DNA of 21,966 bases from a virus, in IMG/VR virus record IMGVR_UViG_3300037635_002938, positions 1-21,966 of that record. One strand, given 5' to 3'. Each line of letters opens with the position of its first letter. Position 1 is the first letter of the stretch. Both the position numbers and the translations under genes were made by a program. Of this stretch, positions 1 through 14,429 are shown in pieces. The notes below the pieces were generated by a model that saw nothing but the letters and a program-made list of their open reading frames with translations, was not told the origin of the DNA and searched no databases.

Positions 1-407
1 ATACCTTCTAAAGATGGAATTTGATTTGAGTTACCATAAACCGCAGAGGTTGATGACATTACAAATGATTTAATCTGACTAATTCTAGAAGCTTCAAGTA
101 CATTAGCTGTACCCAATGCGTTTACAGTAAATGTTGGGATTGGATCTTCAAATGATTCCTGTACACTGACTTTAGCAGCGGTATGAAATACATAGTCCAC
201 ACCAGCGAACAAAGGAACAATTTTAGCAAAATCGCAAATATCATACTTGTAGTTTTTTGCTTTGTGGTTCCAATAATACTTATCATGACCATCGGAAGAT
301 TCATTGTCAATGACAATAACTTTATGACCTAGATGTAATAATCTATCGACGAGGTGGCTGCCGATAAAACCAGCGCCACCCGTCACCAAAGATACTTTTT
401 GGTTCAT
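1..407 (-). CDS. NAD-dependent SDR epimerase/dehydratase, 3' part cut by window edge
   Basis: The first 135 residues of a nucleotide-sugar epimerase/dehydratase of the extended SDR family are visible; the frame is still open at base 1. The Rossmann motif GGAGFIGSHL lies near residues 10-19, followed by an acidic VIDNESS segment, HTAAKVSV near 70-77 and SSTSAVYG near 120-127, which is the pattern of UDP-glucose 4-epimerase-like proteins. The catalytic YxxxK should lie just past the edge, so activity cannot be judged. The ATG at 407 overlaps the upstream gene's TGA in an ATGA junction, which decides the start. Its place as the last visible gene of a sugar-nucleotide operon suggests it makes another activated sugar for the same glycan; the substrate is unknown. 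Confidence 0.85.
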   Translation of the reverse strand, partial: MNQKVSLVTGGAGFIGSHLVDRLLHLGHKVIVIDNESSDGHDKYYWNHKAKNYKYDICDFAKIVPLFAGVDYVFHTAAKVSVQESFEDPIPTFTVNALGTANVLEASRISQIKSFVMSSTSAVYGNSNQIPSLEG

Positions 408-1183
408 TTTTTGTTTGCGAAGTAGATGTAGTTTGTATGTCCAGGTCTAACTTCAGTCTCAGCTTCAATGTTAAAGTCTTTAGATGCGCGGAGTAGATAG
501 TCAGTCGAATTCATATTACCAGGAGTAATATTATTATACACCATATAGAATGATTTCGCATTCAATACTACATCACTGTAGTACTTTTCTTGGATGTCCA
601 TGCTACATTCGGAGAAAGCATAGTTGCTAATAACCAAGTCAATACCATCAATAGAATCTAGCTCAGTGAATGGGAGAGCGCGAAACTTACCATTTAAGTT
701 TTCAAATTTAGAAATGTACTTCTCCTGTAAAGCTGAAGCTTCAGGTAGATCGATGATTACATAGTTATCAAAATCAATAGCACAACTTAGGGTCTTACAT
801 AGACCACCATATCCACCTCCAATCTCAACGATATTTTTAATTTTGGAAGTATCAAACTCAGCAATAACGTCTAGAGTATTTTTGATATATCTAATAGTTG
901 AAGGCGAGATGCTTCCGAAGAAATCATACTCAAGAATTTCAGCATTTCCATACTTATCATTCTCTTTGAATTTCTCTAGAAGTTCTGGAGTGATTACTTC
1001 CTCATAATTTTTCATTTCATTAATGAACATTAGAGATTCGGGTCTCTTAACATGCTCTAGAATTTTCTTATACCTAGCATCTCTTTTAAAATTAGAAAAC
1101 GCTGTATCATCGTTGACAAATTCCATACAAGCCTGAGCGTACTCGGAGGCGTTTGTAGGATTCACATTCCATTCCTGGCTCAT
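404..1183 (-). CDS. SAM-dependent methyltransferase, putative sugar O-methyltransferase
   Basis: A 259-residue protein with a clear SAM-binding motif I, VEIGGGYGG, at about 119-127. An acidic post-I strand, VIIDLPE, lies at about 142-148, and an IDLVISNYAFSE segment at 181-192 is typical of the fourth strand of the Rossmann methyltransferase fold. The N-terminal ~110 residues are helical and carry no motif I recognise. The overall layout resembles the 'putative sugar O-methyltransferase' family found in polysaccharide clusters. That acceptor is inferred from the motif order and from the neighbours (glycosyltransferases, gmd, fcl), not shown. The gene starts 2 bases after the upstream glycosyltransferase stop and overlaps the next gene by ATGA, so the three are probably translated together. 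Confidence 0.75.
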   Translation of the reverse strand: MSQEWNVNPTNASEYAQACMEFVNDDTAFSNFKRDARYKKILEHVKRPESLMFINEMKNYEEVITPELLEKFKENDKYGNAEILEYDFFGSISPSTIRYIKNTLDVIAEFDTSKIKNIVEIGGGYGGLCKTLSCAIDFDNYVIIDLPEASALQEKYISKFENLNGKFRALPFTELDSIDGIDLVISNYAFSECSMDIQEKYYSDVVLNAKSFYMVYNNITPGNMNSTDYLLRASKDFNIEAETEVRPGHTNYIYFANKK

Positions 1184-1185
1184 AA

Positions 1186-2688
1186 TTAATCTCGGTATTT
1201 GGGGTGAGGGGTAGTGAAGTCAATTCCAACTCCACCATATGCGATTGGGTAATACCAGCTCTTATACTGTCCACCAATATCAACAACGTTGTTAAGCTTG
1301 TTTAGATCAAACTTAACCGCATCAAAGAACTGTTGGGATTCACTAATCTCAACACCAACTTTAGATAGAGTAACCTTAGTTGTTGCGGCATTTCCACCTA
1401 CCTGATGGAATGCTGGTGTATCTAGAGCATAGATGTTATAGAATTTTTGTGCGTCAGCAAATCCAACATCAATATGATAACCCCTTTCTACATGTGAACA
1501 TCTAGCAATACGTGTAGCGTGTTGACGATATTCTTCACTGAGGTAGATGATTGCGTGCGCTGATAACATATTATATATGCGTACAATGTCACTGCTAACT
1601 TCACCATAATGAACAAAAGGTCCCATGAAACTTAGGTATCTTCCCCACTGATTTGTTCCAATGTAGAGGGCATCAGCATCTTCTGGTAGGTCATAGATTA
1701 GCTTATCAATCCCCATAGGAAGAATATCATCTTCAGCTAATAAGAATGGAGTCTGAATACTAGTATCACTCAAAACTTTATAATGAGAACCAGAGCAACC
1801 AACTTTCTTAATTCTACTACGAACACCATCCACGCGAGTAACTTTGTCATAACCAAAATCACGCAGTGTCTTTTCAGTCCTAGTAACCTTACCAGGCTCA
1901 TAGTCTACATTAATATAGTATGCAGGTACTGATGTGATATCAAACTTTCTAGTTTTTATTTCAGGCTTAGGTTCTGGAGGATTTAGTGCAGCATTCTTAG
2001 ACTTTTCTAAATGGTACTTATTAGTCATTTTTTGTGGACCATATAAATGAGCAATCAAAGCATTTTGGTGGAATGAATTGAATCTATCATCCATAACAAT
2101 CAAATCAAGGTTATTCTTAAAGACTGTGTAGTTTAGTTCTGACTGATCACCAAAAGGAAAGCTATCAAATCGTTCTTTAAAGTTGCCGATACATTCACGA
2201 AGTTGTCTCATACTACTTTTATCGAAAAGTAATACACCAGAATTAAAATAATAATCTTTAATGTAATCCCAACTAAATTCGGATACAATTCTTTTTTCTG
2301 TCCATTGGATTGCTGGGTTTAAATCACGAACAACTCTGAGACATTCTTGTGGATAGATCTCAAAAAGATTAGGGCAGTCATCATAGACAAATGCATCAGA
2401 ATCCAAGTATAAAATATTATCATATTCAATTTCCCACTTCTCCTCTAGGAAAATTCTAAACCTCTCAAACATAGGATTTAGGAAATTTACATGTGGCTGA
2501 TCAAACAAAACATAATCCGCACCAATTCTCTCAGCATAACGTCTTGCTAGAATATGCGAGTGACCGTATAGTTCCATATTTAGATTCTTTGCGGTTAGCA
2601 TAGAACCTCGGGTACCATCATCCTTTAACTTAGCGTTATCACTAATCAAAGATCTATCAAAGAAAACCTGTACTACTAAATTTTTCAT
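1186..2688 (-). CDS. Two-domain glycosyltransferase (GT8-like plus GT25-like)
   Basis: A 500-residue protein that appears to join two glycosyltransferase units. The N-terminal half has a GT-A pattern like family GT8: YLDSDAF with the DxD metal motif at 96-98, YFNSGVLLFD at 147-156, GDQSELN at 180-186 and AHLYGP at 213-218. The second half, from about residue 255, resembles the GT25/LPS type. It has YYINVDYEPGKVTRTEKTL, then RVDG at 285-288, GCSGSHYKVL at 297-306 and FLLAEDDILP at 315-324, matching the family order of 'INLD..R', 'DG', 'GC..SH' and 'LEDD'. The last 50 residues fit neither unit. Start ATG 2688 overlaps the GT11 stop (ATGA). Sugar donors and acceptors cannot be read from the sequence. 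Confidence is higher for the first unit than for the second. Confidence 0.75.
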   Translation of the reverse strand: MKNLVVQVFFDRSLISDNAKLKDDGTRGSMLTAKNLNMELYGHSHILARRYAERIGADYVLFDQPHVNFLNPMFERFRIFLEEKWEIEYDNILYLDSDAFVYDDCPNLFEIYPQECLRVVRDLNPAIQWTEKRIVSEFSWDYIKDYYFNSGVLLFDKSSMRQLRECIGNFKERFDSFPFGDQSELNYTVFKNNLDLIVMDDRFNSFHQNALIAHLYGPQKMTNKYHLEKSKNAALNPPEPKPEIKTRKFDITSVPAYYINVDYEPGKVTRTEKTLRDFGYDKVTRVDGVRSRIKKVGCSGSHYKVLSDTSIQTPFLLAEDDILPMGIDKLIYDLPEDADALYIGTNQWGRYLSFMGPFVHYGEVSSDIVRIYNMLSAHAIIYLSEEYRQHATRIARCSHVERGYHIDVGFADAQKFYNIYALDTPAFHQVGGNAATTKVTLSKVGVEISESQQFFDAVKFDLNKLNNVVDIGGQYKSWYYPIAYGGVGIDFTTPHPKYRD

Positions 2689-3480: not shown

Positions 3481-4635
3481 TCAAAGTTGATTCAAAATTT
3501 CTTCAAGCATATTCAAATGCCCATCATTAACGAAATGACTATTACCAATATATAGTCCTCTATCCTGGAGGATATCTGCGTTAGGGCAGTGTGCTTTGTA
3601 TCCACTTAAGAATGGTTGCTTAAGTAAGTTACCACCAACTACTGGGCGATACTCAACTAGATATTCATCCAAGAGTTCTTGTAGTTTGATGTGAGTTTTC
3701 TTATGTATAGAAATCAATGGGAAGCAAAAGCTACTCATTCTATAGTTCCAAGTGGGTAGGTGGAACTTATCTTCGTGATGCATCAATAGGTCAATGAATG
3801 TCCGGTAGTTTTCATTGCGTTTGATAATCATATTATCAAGGCGGCGCAACTGTGACTGCCCTAGAACTGCTCCAATCTCATTATTGCGAAAGTTATATCC
3901 GTCAGTCATAAAGAGAAACTGGGAATTAATCTCGGGGTACATTGCAGCATACTTTTTAGCATGAATGGACTCACGAGATAAACCATGAGAACGCTTCATA
4001 CGCATCAGGTCATACATCTCTGTATTGTTAGTGGATACCATACCACCCTCAACCGTAGTCATATGATGTCCAAAGTAGAAGCTGAATGTACCACCTACAT
4101 CATATGTACCAGCCATAGTACCACCTTCAATAACAGCTCCGTGACTCTCACATACATCTTCTAGGATATCTACATCAGGGAAAATCTTATGAAAGTCCTC
4201 AACCTGTGCAGGAAAACCTAGTAAGTGTGTGACGAAGATTGCTCTGATATCTTTATGATCGCAAGCAATAGTCTGTAGGGCACCTAAATCAAAACTAAAA
4301 TCCTTTAGATTAATATCACAGAATACTGGTGTTAAGTTATTCTGAATGATAGGAGCAATGTTAGTAACCCAAGTGCAGGCAGGCACAATGACTTTAGCGC
4401 CATCAGGGATGTCATTTAGATCTTTCCAAGCAGATACCAACAGACTGTTGGCAGTACTACCACTACTAACAAAAAGAGAATGTTTAACTCCAAGCCAGTC
4501 ACTCCAATGCTCCTCGAATTTACGTACTTGTGGTCCCTGTGTTAATCGGCTGGTAGTCAAAACAAACCGAGCCATCCTCATACGGTCCCGCAAAGTAACC
4601 GTATCATCCATAAGATTCCAATTGTAATCAAACAT
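3481..4635 (-). CDS. DegT/DnrJ-fold PLP enzyme with His in place of the catalytic Lys (ColD-like 3-dehydratase)
   Basis: A 384-residue sugar aminotransferase-fold protein. SSGSTANSLL at 57-66 binds the PLP phosphate, the LED at 158-160 supplies the Asp facing the pyridine nitrogen, and EGGMV at 196-200 closes the active-site segment. In aminotransferases that segment reads S-F-x-x-x-K-x-x-T-x-x-E-G-G. Here it is FSFYFGHHMTTVEGG, so His190 takes the Lys position. That substitution is known from GDP-4-keto-6-deoxymannose 3-dehydratase (ColD) and from E1/RfbH 3-dehydrases. Length fits ColD (about 390) rather than RfbH (about 435), and I see no RfbH-like Cys cluster. With gmd upstream to make the substrate, a GDP-3,6-dideoxyhexose branch (colitose type) is the likely role. 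The product sugar is inference. It overlaps the fcl stop by 8 bases. Confidence 0.85.
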   Translation of the reverse strand: MFDYNWNLMDDTVTLRDRMRMARFVLTTSRLTQGPQVRKFEEHWSDWLGVKHSLFVSSGSTANSLLVSAWKDLNDIPDGAKVIVPACTWVTNIAPIIQNNLTPVFCDINLKDFSFDLGALQTIACDHKDIRAIFVTHLLGFPAQVEDFHKIFPDVDILEDVCESHGAVIEGGTMAGTYDVGGTFSFYFGHHMTTVEGGMVSTNNTEMYDLMRMKRSHGLSRESIHAKKYAAMYPEINSQFLFMTDGYNFRNNEIGAVLGQSQLRRLDNMIIKRNENYRTFIDLLMHHEDKFHLPTWNYRMSSFCFPLISIHKKTHIKLQELLDEYLVEYRPVVGGNLLKQPFLSGYKAHCPNADILQDRGLYIGNSHFVNDGHLNMLEEILNQL

Positions 4636-5551
4636 TCTTCAAATACCAACGATAAGTTTGCTGTAGACCGTCTTTAAAAGCAGTACTAGGCTTCCATCCT
4701 AGCTGATTAGCCATAGTGCTGTCAAGTAATTTGCGAGGATTTCCGTTAGGTTTTGTAGTGTCCCATAGAATCTCTCCTTCAAAACCAACAACCTTTGCGA
4801 CCCCTTCTGCTAGCTGTTTGATGGTGATGTCTTCACCAGTCCCAACATTAACGTGACCATAGTCACTGTAGTTATCCATAAAGAACATACAGGCTTCTCC
4901 AAGGTCTTCAGCGAAGAGAAACTCTCTCATAGGTGTTCCGTCACCCCAGCAGGTAACAGTGTCTTCACCAGCCACCTTGGCGTTGTGGAAGCGGTTCATC
5001 AATGATGCGAGGACGTGACCTGAGTCCTCGTGGAAATTGTCTCCAGGACCATATAGATTAGGAGGCATAATACTGATAGCATCAAATCCGTATTGCTCCC
5101 TGTAGAAGTCACACTGTTTGATTCCTGCGATCTTTGCGATTGCGTATGCGTCGTTAGTAGGCTCAAGAGCCCCCGTAAGGAGTTCATTTTCTTTTAGTGG
5201 GTGTTGGCGTCCAGCTGGATAGATGCAAGATGTTCCTAAGAATAGGAGCTTCTTAACACCTGAATAATATGATGAGTCAATTACATTACACTGCATCATT
5301 AGATTGTCGTGTAAGAACTCTGCTTTGCGAGTCTTGTTAGCCATAATACCACCAACTAGGGCAGCAGCTAGGATAACATAATCAACCTTATTAGTCTTAA
5401 ACCATGCACGAACATCTGCTTGTTCACGTAAATCTAGGTCTTTGCTGCGAGGTAGAAGTAGTTTATGTCTTTTGTTTATAAACTGTCTGGTGATTGCTCC
5501 TCCAGCTAAACCACCAGATCCAAAAATAGCTATTGTAGAATTATTGTCCAT
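4628..5551 (-). CDS. fcl: GDP-L-fucose synthase (or closely related ColC-type epimerase/reductase)
   Basis: A 307-residue extended SDR that turns GDP-4-keto-6-deoxymannose into GDP-L-fucose by 3,5-epimerisation and NADPH reduction. [14 protein letters not shown] (residues 7-20) is the cofactor loop. LGTSCIYP at 105-112 and YAIAK with Tyr136/Lys140 are the catalytic elements. [16 protein letters not shown] and NLYGPGDNF are highly typical of the fucose synthase family. A TTG at 5569 would extend the protein by 6 residues. I prefer ATG 5551 because it is a standard codon with an AAGAG stretch about 10 bases upstream, and it overlaps the gmd stop by only 11 bases. ColC, the last enzyme of colitose synthesis, belongs to the same family, and the neighbouring ColD-like gene leaves that option open. 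Confidence 0.93.
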
Positions 5552-6542
5552 TAAGTACCATCTCTTCAACTAGTCCATCAAATGTAAATTTAGGCTCCCA
5601 TCCCAAAACTGTTTTTGCTTTGGTTGGATCACCGAGAAGAGTTTCCACTTCTGCTGGTCTGAAATATTTAGGATTGACTTTCACAACTGTTCTGTTGGTG
5701 TTTAGGCAATAACCAAACTCTTCCATTCCTTCACCGCGCCACTCAATATTGAACCCAAAGTATGGGGCAGCAGCATCTACAAATTGCTTGACTGAATACT
5801 GCTCACCAGTTGCGATAACATAATCATCAGGCTTCTCCTGTTGGAGCATCAACCACATAGCTTCTACGTAGTCTTGTGCGTGTCCCCAGTCACGTCTTGC
5901 GTTGAGGTTTCCAAGTTGGAGATCACTTTGGAGTCCCACACTAATTCTGGACAAGGCTCGGACGATCTTGCGCGTGACGAACGTCTCTCCACGGCGGCTG
6001 CTCTCGTGGTTGAATAGAATTCCGCTAGAAGCATGTAAGTCATAACTTTCTCTGTAGTTCTTAATGATCCAGTACCCGTATAGTTTAGCAACTCCGTAGG
6101 GAGAACGTGGATACATCGGAGTGGTTTCTGTTTGTGGTGTCTCCTGTACTAGCCCATAAAGCTCACTGGTGCTCGCCTGATAGATTCGTACTGAATCCTC
6201 CATACCAAGTAAACGGACGGCTTCTAGGACACGTAGAGTGCCTAATGCGTCGGTATTAGCGGTATACTCTGGCTGATCGAAGGAAACCTTGACGTGACTC
6301 TGGGCACCTAGGTTATAAATCTCTTCTGGTTGGACTTCCTTAATGATCCTAACAATACCTAGGGCATCTGTTAGGTCACCGTAGTGAAGTGTAATACGGT
6401 CAAAAATATGGTCAATTCTATGGGTGTTAATCAGAGAGGAACGACGGACAATACCGTGAACTTCATATCCTTTTTGTAGGAGGAGTTCGGCTAGATATGA
6501 TCCATCCTGCCCTGTGATACCCGTAATAAGTGCTACTTTCAT
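5541..6542 (-). CDS. gmd: GDP-mannose 4,6-dehydratase
   Basis: A full-length 333-residue SDR that converts GDP-D-mannose to GDP-4-keto-6-deoxy-D-mannose, the common precursor of GDP-fucose, GDP-rhamnose, GDP-perosamine and GDP-colitose. The cofactor motif [11 protein letters not shown] begins at residue 7 and RRSSL is at 33-37. [10 protein letters not shown] at 121-130 supplies the Thr and Glu of the active site, and [10 protein letters not shown] has Tyr149 and Lys153 of Yxxx[12 protein letters not shown] and [17 protein letters not shown] are conserved in the family. It is the first gene of the glycan operon. It has its own extended -10 promoter just upstream and is insulated by a terminator. 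The mannose donor must come from the host, since no mannose pathway gene lies in this window. Confidence 0.97.
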
Positions 6543-10365: not shown

Positions 10366-11562
10366 TTAAGAATTCCAAAGATCACCTTCGGCAATACGGC
10401 GTCGAGACAAACCTGCCTCTACGCTAGTGCCTGGGTTACGGTATAAGTATAATGCATCTGGGACTTTTGACCACTCTTTCTCCTTCAAAACACGACTGAT
10501 TGTGTTGAAATTGGGACTTCCGTAGAATCTAGCACCTAAGTTATAAGCAAAACTAACCAATGCTCCGTGCTGATTGTCGTTCATCTCATCCCAGAATGGG
10601 ATTGTTTTTTCTAATACATCAAGATAGTTATACTTAACCTGCTGATCCAAGAGTAAGTCAGCCTTTTCCCTAGAGATTTTATCTCCAAGCTCAAATCGGG
10701 AGCCATCAATATCTTTAGTAGAACCCCAGCCAATAGTAATTGGGAGGTTTCCTGATAGTGGATCTGGGTATGCTTCTAGATGTAGTCCTTCAAATTCTTT
10801 AATGAGTTCCATACCAGCAGCAGGAAGCTTACCAGAGGAGCTAGGAGAGGTTTCAACTTTCGCATAGAACACACGTCCCCAACCAGTGCTAGGACCATCA
10901 ACAGTCCACCTAGCCTCTAGTACGTGCCTCTCATAGATGGCAGAGCGTCCGTTGTATACAGAACTAGTGTAGCCATCGTAAAGGTCTCCATATGGGTCGT
11001 GAACGATATACTGACCCTTTGCGTTCTTTCCTATGAGAACGATCATATGACCGCCTGTGGGTGCTGATAGGGTGCCTCTATGAAGAATGCCTAGCACAAC
11101 AGGTCTTTTTTCTTCTAACTCCTTATCTAGATCATCAAAGGATAGATTGTATTTAAATTCAGAATCAACACCATAGTCTTTTAATACTTTGGTTTGTACT
11201 GAGTGATCTGTTGTATCTCCAACAGCAAATACCTTACGGATATAATCATCATCACCTTTGGGACCCCGCAGAGTGCCTGGGCGAAAATACTCCAAAGTCA
11301 TAGCACAGGAAGATGAGTTACACGTTCTATCTGGTTCAGTGTAGTTATCTGTCTGTGGATAGAAAGGAACTGGAAGAAGTAACTCCGCAGGTTCTGGGTT
11401 TGGTTCTGGTTTATTGCGATATGTCTCTACCCATTCAGACTCATCTTCTAATAATTCTGGCGCTGCCTTTATTAATGCGGCTTCAAGTTCAGCGACAGCT
11501 TCCCTATGGTGAGAGAGTTTATCATCATAAAACTTGAAAAAGTTGCTAAGTTCTATTCTCAT
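10366..11562 (-). CDS. Two-domain lytic enzyme: C39-like peptidase plus GH24 lysozyme
   Basis: A 398-residue protein. Residues 1-60 are a helical, acidic then Pro-rich lead. Residues 62-235 resemble the C39-like papain-fold peptidases: LLPVPFYPQTDNY, TCNSSSCAM with candidate nucleophile Cys81 or Cys86, GGHMIVLIG with His172, and IVHDPYGD with Asp189. After a Ser-rich linker (238-245), residues 250-398 form a T4-type lysozyme domain (GH24): LIKEFEG with catalytic Glu258, AYPDPLSG with Asp267, TIGWGST with Thr276, QHGALVSFAYNLG, and a C-terminal GLSRRRIAEGDLW. The pair would cut both the peptide and glycan parts of murein. No signal peptide or TM segment is seen, so it would need a holin or sit in the virion. 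A late promoter (11581) precedes it and cpeT follows. Confidence 0.88.
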   Translation of the reverse strand: MRIELSNFFKFYDDKLSHHREAVAELEAALIKAAPELLEDESEWVETYRNKPEPNPEPAELLLPVPFYPQTDNYTEPDRTCNSSSCAMTLEYFRPGTLRGPKGDDDYIRKVFAVGDTTDHSVQTKVLKDYGVDSEFKYNLSFDDLDKELEEKRPVVLGILHRGTLSAPTGGHMIVLIGKNAKGQYIVHDPYGDLYDGYTSSVYNGRSAIYERHVLEARWTVDGPSTGWGRVFYAKVETSPSSSGKLPAAGMELIKEFEGLHLEAYPDPLSGNLPITIGWGSTKDIDGSRFELGDKISREKADLLLDQQVKYNYLDVLEKTIPFWDEMNDNQHGALVSFAYNLGARFYGSPNFNTISRVLKEKEWSKVPDALYLYRNPGTSVEAGLSRRRIAEGDLWNS

Positions 11563-11580
11563 AATATATCCGAGACGGTT

Positions 11581-11588
11581 TATTTATA
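11581..11588 (-). promoter_or_regulatory. T4-type late promoter TATAAATA before the lytic enzyme
   Basis: A perfect TATAAATA on the minus strand lies 19 bases before the 11562 ATG. The TAA stop of the upstream oxygenase (11584-11586) is part of the motif, so this gene end and promoter are the same bases. Confidence 0.75.
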
Positions 11589-12651
11589 CTGCCCACGTGA
11601 CGATAGCATATCTAATACCACTTGTTATCTCCTCAATTTTATGAGGGAACATAAAATTAGCTGGAAATATACAAATATCACCCATATTCAAATGAGTAAT
11701 GTACTTATCATAACAGTGACGTAAGGCTCCACCTTCATAGTCTTCATTCAATTGAATGATAATAGTAACTTCTCTATTATACTCTGAGAACTGATCGGTA
11801 TGGTAGTCATATTTTCCTCCAGGAGTATACCTTAGACAATTATATCCTGCATCCATAGAGACCTTAAAATCATCAAACTCTCTACAAAAATCACGCAGCG
11901 CTTTCCTAACATACATATTGATTGTCGAGTCAATAGAATCATCGGGAGTTAAATTTAAATCATCACATAATCTACCTATATCTGTACAAGTTTTACCAGA
12001 AGAAACTTCAGCCCTTTTCCATCTGCTTGAGTATTCATCACTAGTTATAACATCCACAATTTCTCCACAAACTTTACGTGGAACCATACTCCTATAAACT
12101 TTAATATAGTCACTCAAATTACCAGTTTTGTTTTGAAATTGACTTTCACATTCTCCACCTAGGAAAACATAATGGTGAAATGTTTGAAAATACTCTTCTC
12201 CACAGTACTCATCTCTCCAATGAACAGCATTGGGTCCGTCATATATAACTGCGTCACCTGGCTCTAGGTCAATTGATACATCTTTCCCATCTTTATTTTC
12301 AATATAAAATTTAGATTCAGCATCTCCATCTAGGTGGATGCTTAAAGATACCTCACAGGCATCTCTATCAGTATGCTTCTTTAGATCAGACTTATTCCCA
12401 TAAATTCTACTGTAAGTATATGTTGGTAATAATTTTGGACCACCAATATATTCATTTAAGAACGCAACTTTTTCAGAAGCAATAGCAGACATCTCACTAA
12501 GATTATAGAATGCTCGTCTATTGGGTTCTTCTTCATCAATCACCTCCTTACTATTCCTCATAGAATCAGCTAGCTGAAGTGCTGTTTCACGTGACAAATA
12601 TCCTCTAACAACTTTATAAGTGTCACCGATAACTTCTTGTAATTTTGACAT
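11584..12651 (-). CDS. Tandem 2-oxoglutarate/Fe(II) oxygenase-type protein
   Basis: A 355-residue protein with two prolyl-hydroxylase-like cupin units. In the first, KKHTDRD gives His93 and Asp95, DLEPGDAVIYDG (128-139) is the usual turn, and NAVHWRD gives His144. No Arg or Lys sits about ten residues later, where 2-oxoglutarate is normally held, so this unit may be degenerate or bind differently. The second is complete: YDYHTDQ with His284 and Asp286, YEGGAL at 305-310, NMGDICIFP, FPHKIEE with His337, and the co-substrate Arg347. Members hydroxylate or oxidise protein, lipid or small-molecule substrates; cyanophages carry many with unknown targets. The start overlaps the GIY-YIG gene stop by one base (TAATG), and the stop forms the late promoter of the next gene. 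Confidence 0.85.
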   Translation of the reverse strand: MSKLQEVIGDTYKVVRGYLSRETALQLADSMRNSKEVIDEEEPNRRAFYNLSEMSAIASEKVAFLNEYIGGPKLLPTYTYSRIYGNKSDLKKHTDRDACEVSLSIHLDGDAESKFYIENKDGKDVSIDLEPGDAVIYDGPNAVHWRDEYCGEEYFQTFHHYVFLGGECESQFQNKTGNLSDYIKVYRSMVPRKVCGEIVDVITSDEYSSRWKRAEVSSGKTCTDIGRLCDDLNLTPDDSIDSTINMYVRKALRDFCREFDDFKVSMDAGYNCLRYTPGGKYDYHTDQFSEYNREVTIIIQLNEDYEGGALRHCYDKYITHLNMGDICIFPANFMFPHKIEEITSGIRYAIVTWAV

Positions 12652-13832: not shown

Positions 13833-13858
13833 AAAAAAGCTCCCCTATTAAGGGAGCT
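13833..13858 (-). terminator. Intrinsic terminator overlapping the oxygenase stop codon
   Basis: On the minus strand AGCTCCC and GGGAGCT form a 7-bp stem followed by six T. The oxygenase gene's TAA (13848-13850) lies in the loop, so the last codons form half of the stem. Confidence 0.88.
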
Positions 13859-14429
13859 CATACATAGTGAACGCAATAGTCTTTCTATACGCTTTAGCTA
13901 AAGAATTTGGGGCTGACCCTCGATGGTCTCTATGTGCTGCGCATAAACACCCACAGTTAGGTATAAATGGAACATAGTAATATTCACCTTCTGTGGTATA
14001 TACAAATTCCCCTCCCCATAGTGAATCCCAGTTGGTATTAAGAAAAATGACAAACGTCCAACACCCCTCAATTCCATCTTGATGAAAGGTATTTTCCATA
14101 CCAGGATATTGTATATTTGTATTGATACGAACTAGAGATAATTTTCTTTTTAATATTTTTTCCGACATTAATTTTATATTACTACCAATACGAATAAACG
14201 TTAGGTTATCTCCTAACAAATCATCGTTATATGTAATATTAATATTTTTATAGTGATATGGTTTTGATATCGCTAGTCTTGGTAATATATCAGATGAATC
14301 AATTGAATTATTTTTAACAAATAAATTATTGTAGCTGAAATTAAATTCATCATTTATAAGAGTAAAATCAGATATTGATAGCACATCCTTAATTTTATAT
14401 AAGGACGTGCTTATTTCTTTACACTTCAT
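13848..14429 (-). CDS. 2-oxoglutarate/Fe(II) oxygenase, prolyl-hydroxylase type
   Basis: A 193-residue protein. The C-terminal half is a P4H-like cupin: SLVRINTNIQYPG, FHQDG with iron ligands His116 and Asp118, FLNTNWDSLWGGEF at 129-142, PNCGCLCAAHRDHRGSAPN with His169 as the probable third ligand, and YRKTIAF with Arg182 for 2-oxoglutarate. The N-terminal ~95 residues are rich in Asn, Ile, Lys and Ser and have no known motif. By eye the gene is clearly more AT-rich than nrdB and nrdA beside it, suggesting recent transfer. Its start overlaps the nrdB stop (ATGA) and its end carries its own terminator, so it looks like a cargo gene added behind nrdB. The substrate is unknown. Confidence 0.82.
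   Translation of the reverse strand: MKCKEISTSLYKIKDVLSISDFTLINDEFNFSYNNLFVKNNSIDSSDILPRLAISKPYHYKNINITYNDDLLGDNLTFIRIGSNIKLMSEKILKRKLSLVRINTNIQYPGMENTFHQDGIEGCWTFVIFLNTNWDSLWGGEFVYTTEGEYYYVPFIPNCGCLCAAHRDHRGSAPNSLAKAYRKTIAFTMYELP

What the first reader, a model, noticed from the sequence alone, without database searches (positions are those of the whole stretch)
1186..2688. Fusion of a GT8-like and a GT25-like glycosyltransferase
The N-terminal half shows DxD, NSG, DQ and H motifs in GT8 order. The C-terminal half shows INVD, DG, GC..SH and AEDD in GT25 order. A single phage protein adding two sugars would be efficient for a short glycan and is not an arrangement I know as standard.
Basis: partly seen in the sequence, partly recalled or inferred. 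Interest (0 to 1): 0.5.

Follow-up and report, generated by a model that had tools for sequence, protein, structure and literature searches.

The report
Two-enzyme sugar transferase in a cyanophage
A virus of marine cyanobacteria appears to encode one protein made of two different sugar-adding enzymes, and some of its relatives attach the same first enzyme to other second enzymes, as if these phages build their sugar-coating tools from exchangeable blocks.

Summary
Window 1186-2688, minus strand, is one 500-residue ORF. Residues 1-236 are a GT8-like domain: Pfam GT8 E 3.4e-10, GT8 motifs, predicted GT-A fold (pLDDT 84) matching PBCV-1 A064R, LARGE1, WbbM and LgtC at Z about 15. Residues 249-440 are a second GT-A domain related to GT25: its fold is closest to the catalytic domain of human COLGALT1 (Z 16.1) and its EDD motif is invariant. 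It misses Pfam's GT25 model, so I call it GT25-like.

In cyanophage S-CAM7, the closest isolated relative, the halves are separate genes 26 kb apart. No other record seen carries this exact pair, so the pairing rests on one metagenome contig.

The wider point: relatives of the GT8-like domain are often joined to other enzymes (GT9, GT61, GT4-like, another DXD transferase, two kinds of methyltransferase; 19 of 31 clusters). Between two close phages the partner changes at residue 235-236. Outside this clade partners are mostly inherited.

Most likely this is a bifunctional transferase of a phage glycan cluster. Activity, sugars and acceptor are untested; a collagen-like tail protein is encoded beside the cluster in three relatives.

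The parts
1186..2688 (-). ORF of the two-domain glycosyltransferase, 500 aa (P0001)
1981..2688 (-). GT8-like domain, residues 1-236
   Evidence: Pfam, PHROG, fold
1945..1980 (-). Proline-rich linker, residues 237-248; no in-frame ATG/GTG/TTG within residues 228-270
1369..1944 (-). GT25-like GT-A domain, residues 249-440
   Evidence: PHROG; hhalign; fold
1189..1368 (-). C-terminal tail, residues 441-500, low confidence in the model; partly covered by phrog_24091
2395..2403 (-). DxD motif of the GT8-like domain (D96, D98)
   Evidence: at least 90% conserved in 36 rows
2236..2244 (-). NSG motif (N149, G151 at least 90% conserved in 36 rows)
2143..2148 (-). DQ motif (D181, Q182): Q at least 90% conserved in 36 rows; D is E in many remote rows
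2029..2049 (-). HxxGxxK motif (H214, G217, K220): H and G at least 90% conserved in 36 rows, K only in the five close rows
1783..1800 (-). GCSGSH motif of the GT25-like domain (297-302)
   Evidence: G297 invariant in 36 rows
1726..1734 (-). EDD motif (319-321), like the COLGALT1 EDD metal site
   Evidence: invariant in 36 rows; PMC13382579 passage
404..1183 (-). neighbour: putative sugar O-methyltransferase
   Evidence: NCBIfam TIGR04371, 72.6 bits against 44
3..407 (-). neighbour: NAD-dependent sugar epimerase, cut by the contig end
2685..3479 (-). neighbour: GT11 (fucosyltransferase-type) glycosyltransferase
3481..4635 (-). neighbour: ColD-like 3-dehydratase (DegT fold, His-His in place of the catalytic Lys)
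4628..5569 (-). neighbour: GDP-L-fucose-synthase-like epimerase/reductase (below NCBIfam's cutoff, PDB match E 1e-90)
5541..6542 (-). neighbour: GDP-mannose 4,6-dehydratase

Best explanation
The protein is a bifunctional glycosyltransferase of a cyanophage glycan cluster. The N-terminal GT8-like domain transfers one sugar and the C-terminal GT25-like domain transfers another, probably in successive steps on one acceptor, so that both steps stay together. Shown by computation: one ORF, two complete GT-A folds, conserved motif positions in both, a neighbourhood of GDP-deoxysugar genes, and a GT8-like clade that often has a second sugar-modifying enzyme as covalent partner. Inferred: that both domains are active, that they act in sequence, and which sugars and acceptor they use. 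The fusion probably arose by recombination that brought a separately encoded GT25-like gene (still separate in S-CAM7) behind the GT8-like gene and removed the stop and start between them.
For: GT8: Pfam; motif positions invariant in 5 close rows and mostly kept in 36 rows; fold matches PBCV-1 glycosyltransferase entries 2p6w/2p72, LARGE1, WbbM, LgtC at Z 15.1-15.5. GT25-like: hhalign to six phage GT25 proteins (two of them checked with Pfam), probability 98.4, E 6.4e-15, over 75 columns, with control comparisons at probability 0.4 and 0.3; COLGALT1 catalytic domain Z 16.1, rmsd 2.8 over 172 residues; EDD invariant in 36 rows. Separate genes in S-CAM7: 167.9 kb (54% identity) and 141.0 kb (46%). 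GMD, ColD-like, fucose-synthase-like and GT11 genes upstream. Other partners of the GT8-like domain.
Against: The GT8-GT25 pair is seen in this one contig only (DNA patterns over the linker and over the start of the C domain gave 0). In COLGALT1, the nearest structure to the C domain, dimerisation is by the N-terminal domain and the C-terminal one is catalytic (passages of PMC13382579), so one domain here could be inactive; though a motif in the N-terminal part of GLT25D1 (166-168) was also needed for activity (abstract of PMC3244457). The GT25-like domain misses Pfam's GT25 model, and the hhalign match covers its first 75 columns only. No activity, donor or acceptor is known for either half.
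Confidence: 0.65

Rival explanations
1. Only one domain is catalytic; the other GT-A fold serves dimerisation or acceptor binding, as the N-terminal domain of COLGALT1 is said to do.
For: COLGALT1 is the best structural match of the C domain and is described with this division of labour (passages of PMC13382579).
Against: Both domains keep most of their motif positions across distant relatives, and both exist as stand-alone proteins in other phages, which argues that each works alone.
Confidence: 0.2
2. Assembly chimera or a decaying gene: the two genes were joined by mis-assembly or by a recent deletion without function.
For: Single contig; G+C differs between halves (33% N, 39% C; window 39.5%); no second copy found, though records very near the window's genome may be left out of those searches.
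Against: The join is in frame, between complete domains, with a linker; four other contigs (L007, L008, L096, L097) join a close relative of the same GT8-like domain to other enzymes at the same place, and a fifth (L009) ends 13 residues into the partner.
Confidence: 0.08
3. The enzyme acts on the host's lipopolysaccharide or exopolysaccharide (receptor masking), not on the phage particle.
For: GT8, GT9 and GT25 enzymes of bacteria commonly build lipopolysaccharide, and colitose and fucose are O-antigen sugars (both recalled); genes for such sugars lie beside it.
Against: In S-CAM7, L096 and L097 the cluster runs into a collagen-like tail protein gene. This is position only; no sequence evidence decides between targets.
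Confidence: 0.3

Closest known systems
PBCV-1 (chlorovirus) A064R and A111/114R
   Same: Viral proteins with a GT-A domain joined covalently to other transferases, building the virus's own glycan (passages of PMC7826918 and PMC9614988). PBCV-1 capsid-glycosylation entries 2p6w/2p72/2p73 are top matches of our N domain, Z 15.4-15.5 (that these are A064R domain 1 is recalled). A111/114R domain 1 is modelled on LgtC.
   Different: Three domains instead of two; partners are other families (a rhamnosyltransferase of a new family plus methyltransferase; xylosyl- and fucosyltransferase). Virus of a green alga; sequence relation was not tested.
LARGE1 (GT8 + GT49) and WbbM (GT8 with a second transferase domain)
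   Same: Enzymes with a GT8 domain and a second transferase domain; fold matches Z 15.5 and 15.3 to our N domain.
   Different: Second domains belong to other families (recalled); cellular enzymes. WbbM as bifunctional with a GT8-type C-terminal domain is stated in PMC7826918 (passage).
Human COLGALT1 / GLT25D1
   Same: Two domains in one chain, the C-terminal one catalytic with an EDD metal site (passages); best fold match to our C domain.
   Different: Its N-terminal domain is described as the dimerisation domain; ours ranks GT8 structures first. Eukaryotic, acts on collagen hydroxylysine.
S-CAM7 genes S420910_229 and S420910_186
   Same: Homologues of the two halves, 54% and 46% identical, in a phage sharing 86.5% DNA identity over 57% of the 8 kb queried.
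   Different: Two separate genes 26 kb apart, both annotated as hypothetical.

Membership tests
GT8 (N domain) | Pfam PF01501 above its curated cutoff | tested here: met
   40.4 bits against 24.3
GT8 (N domain) | DxD, NxG, DQ and HxxGxxK motif positions | tested here: met
   present in the window protein; in 36 rows D181 is often E and K220 is not kept. The motif list itself is recalled
GT8 (N domain) | GT-A fold most like GT8 enzymes | tested here: met
   LgtC, WbbM, LARGE1, GlyE among the top rows, Z 15.0-15.5
GT8 (N domain) | retaining transfer from a UDP-sugar | not testable with these tools
   needs enzymology
GT25 (C domain) | Pfam PF01755 above its curated cutoff | tested here: not met
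   no GT25 hit at E up to 1 for the window protein; S-CAM7 homologue 22.1, L010 20.5, P-SSM5 15.5 bits against 24
GT25 (C domain) | profile relation to GT25 proteins | tested here: met
   hhalign probability 98.4 over 75 columns; controls 0.4 and 0.3
GT25 (C domain) | GT25 fold and EDD metal motif | tested here: met
   COLGALT1 C-terminal domain Z 16.1; EDD invariant in 36 rows
COLGALT-type bi-domain galactosyltransferase | N-terminal domain homologous to the COLGALT1 N domain | tested here: inconclusive
   Foldseek aligns the whole chain with rmsd about 21 A; the N domain searched alone ranks GT8 structures first
A064R-type viral trifunctional enzyme | two transferase domains plus a methyltransferase in one chain | tested here: not met
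   no methyltransferase domain in the window protein; a methyltransferase partner occurs in relatives L008, L096, L097

The most novel reading that the evidence does not exclude
A phage GT8-like domain works as a fixed anchor whose second enzyme is exchanged at one junction (about residue 236), so that phages switch the next sugar, or a methyl cap, on their own surface glycan by swapping a domain rather than a gene. In this cyanophage lineage the glycan may decorate the Thr-rich collagen-like tail protein encoded beside the cluster, which would make the COLGALT1-like second domain part of a phage collagen-glycosylation system.
Probability: 0.2. Interest if true: 0.75.

Novelty: new variant of a known kind. 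Interest (0 to 1): 0.5.

Why it matters
Two PHROG families of unknown function get a predicted function as glycosyltransferases. The clade around this GT8-like domain shows covalent partner change between very close relatives, so domain-level turnover can be followed at DNA level. If the acceptor is the virion, the surface of marine cyanophages could change through a single recombination; S-CAM7, a cultured phage with both halves as separate genes, makes the acceptor testable.

Tried and rejected
Single full-length model: the first AlphaFold job (A7, 40 rows) gave a good C domain but a poor N domain (ten-residue means 37-71) because only seven rows covered the N domain. More relatives were found and the N domain was predicted alone. 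The relative placement of the two domains is therefore unknown.

PDB by sequence: phmmer with the whole protein found nothing at E up to 1. NCBIfam found nothing for the protein at E up to 0.001. The direct viral-contig search with the single protein gave no relatives; alignments of each half were needed. Genome contigs gave none with A3 and one with A9, a Pirellulales MAG contig.

Limits of 'seen once': the tools say that records of the window's genome, or of one very near it, may be left out; and of 93 C-half relatives only the best 80 were kept. So a second GT8-GT25 fusion may exist unseen.

Collagen link: 3 of the 6 close N-domain loci tested carry 12 or more consecutive Gly-X-Y triplets (L001, L096, L097; not L095, L098, L099), and 0 of the 79 C-half loci. 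Flanks are short, so this is weak support confined to one lineage, and it is kept as a possibility only.

Domain swapping as a general habit: over the whole tree of 37 N domains the partner labels need 8 changes, 7 being the least possible. GT9, Methyltransf_24 and the N-terminal DXD transferase each sit in one or nearly one clade. Exchange is thus shown for the window's own clade, not for the family at large. Nine rows have long end branches, so their places are unsure.

Internal start: in the four methyltransferase fusions (L008, L009, L096, L097) an ATG lies at residue 237 behind a ribosome-site-like stretch, so there the second enzyme may also be made alone. This is not so at the junction of the window protein or of L007.

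Absence in print: of the ten paper searches, three were on two-domain or fused glycosyltransferases: 10 of 10 papers listed; 15 of 24 listed; 0 papers. By title and start of abstract none listed describes a GT8-GT25 fusion in a phage. Subscription journals are mostly not held.

Literature seen: PMC7826918, PMC9614988 and PMC13382579 as passages only; PMC3244457 as outline with abstract. All others as search listings.

Full report
What is there. The finding lies on the minus strand. The ORF runs from 2688 down to 1186 and gives 500 residues. The window is a 21,966-base virus record. Its first 8 kb shares 86.5% DNA identity over 57% of its length with Synechococcus phage S-CAM7, a Kyanoviridae cyanophage.

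N-terminal domain. Pfam Glyco_transf_8 matches residues 77-208 above its cutoff. Among five close sequences all GT8 motif positions are invariant. Among 36 rows including remote phage relatives D96, D98, N149, G151, Q182, H214 and G217 are at least 90% conserved, while D181 is often E and K220 is not kept. Predicted alone from that alignment, the domain has mean pLDDT 83.7 and pTM 0.86. Foldseek's first three rows are LgtC, a PBCV-1 capsid-glycosylation enzyme (2p6w; A064R domain 1, as recalled) and GlyE. VIA-align gives Z 15.5 for 2p6w and 2p72 (rmsd 3.4-3.5, 186-188 residues) and LARGE1 (3.8 A, 205), 15.3 for WbbM (3.4 A, 204) and 15.2 for LgtC (3.6 A, 200); these are ties.

C-terminal domain. 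No Pfam family matches it reliably. Its homologues in S-CAM7 and L010 hit Glyco_transf_25 below the cutoff (22.1 and 20.5 bits against 24), that of P-SSM5 more weakly (15.5). A profile of 36 relatives matches a profile of six phage GT25 proteins (two of them checked with Pfam, 47.1 and 46.4 bits; the other four are close homologues) with probability 98.4 and E 6.4e-15 over 75 columns, while N domain against GT25 and C domain against N domain give 0.4 and 0.3. The model is confident at residues 241-430. Its nearest solved structure is the C-terminal, catalytic domain of human COLGALT1, Z 16.1, rmsd 2.8 over 172 residues; further rows include mimivirus R655 (13.1) and a beta-1,4-galactosyltransferase, 8xlz (12.8). 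E319, D320 and D321 are invariant in the 36 rows; COLGALT1 uses an EDD site for its metal (passage of PMC13382579). Because the Pfam threshold is missed I call the domain GT25-like, not a GT25 member.

The two halves elsewhere. In S-CAM7 the N half is a 261-residue gene at 167.9 kb and the C half a 238-residue gene at 141.0 kb. In P-SSM5 and two marine single-cell viruses the C half is a stand-alone gene of 212-215 residues. Of 93 stretches matched with the C-half alignment the best 80 were kept, as 79 loci; no ORF bearing the C half in them exceeds 250 residues (L072 and L073 are cut by contig ends and L075 is split into two ORFs). So among the sequences seen only the window has the C half fused. 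Patterns over the linker and over the start of the C domain found no second copy. Records very near the window's genome may be left out of these searches, so absence weighs little.

The wider pattern. The N domain behaves differently. Of five close contigs, L007 joins it to a GT61 domain (Pfam 4.7e-14) and L008 to a methyltransferase (Methyltransf_25, 27.8 bits against a cutoff of 27); L096 and L097 carry the same methyltransferase (69% identical to L008's) and L009 ends 13 residues into it. A wider search gave 48 viral loci. Counting one entry per contig, with S-CAM7, L100, L103 and L106 added, 51 sequences fall into 31 clusters at 80% identity. In 19 of 31 clusters a second enzyme is supported by a Pfam match above its cutoff or, for L096/L097, by similarity to L008: GT9 in 12, a GT4-like domain in 1 (26.5 bits against 26), Methyltransf_24 in 2, an N-terminal DXD sugar transferase in 2, and the two close clusters just described. 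Nine clusters stand alone by length or lack a recognised partner, and three are cut by contig ends. Pfam was run on one representative of the other clusters, and not on all stand-alone ones. In L100, L117, L134, L146 and L154 the GT8-like part is recognised by similarity to this family, not by Pfam GT8; in L137 it is below the cutoff.

Partner change. L007 and L008 share 91% DNA identity over 2,946 bases, and the identity ends at residue 235-236 of the GT8-like ORF, where the partners begin (coordinates of L095 and L098, the same contigs). On the tree of 37 N domains these two are sister rows (100/90) with different partners, and the seven-row clade that holds the window (100/99) contains four states: GT25-like, GT61, methyltransferase and none. 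Over the whole tree the labels need 8 changes (least possible 7; shuffled mean 18.2), so partners are inherited in most clades; exchange is shown for the window's own clade. In the four methyltransferase fusions an ATG sits at residue 237 behind a purine-rich, ribosome-site-like stretch; in the window and in L007 no such start exists at the junction. This suggests a path from overlapping genes through read-through to full fusion; that path is inference.

Setting. Next to the gene lie a GT11 gene, a ColD-like 3-dehydratase, a GDP-L-fucose-synthase-like gene, GDP-mannose 4,6-dehydratase, a putative sugar O-methyltransferase and a cut epimerase. The dehydratase matches ColD and its variants best (E 3.8e-49) and has HH where aminotransferases carry the catalytic lysine (the lysine/histidine rule is recalled). 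The cluster may thus make GDP-colitose, GDP-fucose or both. In S-CAM7 the cluster continues into an annotated tail fibre gene with Gly-X-Y repeats (146 triplets in runs of five or more), and in L096 and L097 into a similar ORF; in the longest runs the third position is Thr in 64-73%. The window ends before that point. Mimivirus L230 glucosylates peptides of a viral collagen-like protein (passage of PMC9614988), so the idea is not far-fetched, but no test here links this enzyme to the tail, and 0 of 79 C-half loci show such repeats nearby.

Mechanism. Most likely each domain binds a nucleotide sugar and the two steps follow each other on one acceptor. Two folds and conserved motif positions are shown by computation; activity, order, sugars and acceptor are inferred. 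The main rival on mechanism is a COLGALT1-like division with one inactive domain; on target, host lipopolysaccharide.

Novelty. Viral multi-domain glycosyltransferases are known from chloroviruses (passages of PMC7826918 and PMC9614988), so this is a new variant of a known kind. The pairing of GT8-like with GT25-like, and the exchange of partners behind a phage GT8-like domain, were not among the papers listed in the searches made.

Noticed in passing
window 3481-6542 (-): GDP-mannose 4,6-dehydratase, a ColD-like 3-dehydratase (His-His in place of the catalytic Lys) and a fucose-synthase-like gene: a possible phage-borne GDP-colitose pathway.
   Followed up: partly
L001 11540-15742; L096 10777-12726; L097 9132-11081: Collagen-like, Thr-rich tail protein genes after the glycan cluster in S-CAM7 and two relatives.
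   Followed up: partly
L008, L009, L096, L097, residue 237 of the GT8 ORF: In-frame ATG behind a ribosome-site-like stretch at the start of the methyltransferase part, so the second enzyme may also be made alone.
   Followed up: partly
window 10366-11562 (-): Fusion of a C39-like peptidase domain with a phage lysozyme domain.
   Followed up: no
window 11584-12651 and 13848-14429 (-): Two 2OG-Fe(II) oxygenase-like genes, the second only a sub-threshold match; whether they act on proteins is unknown.
   Followed up: no
L001 8770-9339 (S420910_230): Annotated as adenylylsulfate kinase, but the sequence reads like a SAM methyltransferase (by eye; no family search made).
   Followed up: no
L104 and L105 (same contigs as L144 and L132): An N-terminal DXD sugar transferase joined in front of the same GT8-like domain, the reverse order of the other fusions.
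   Followed up: partly
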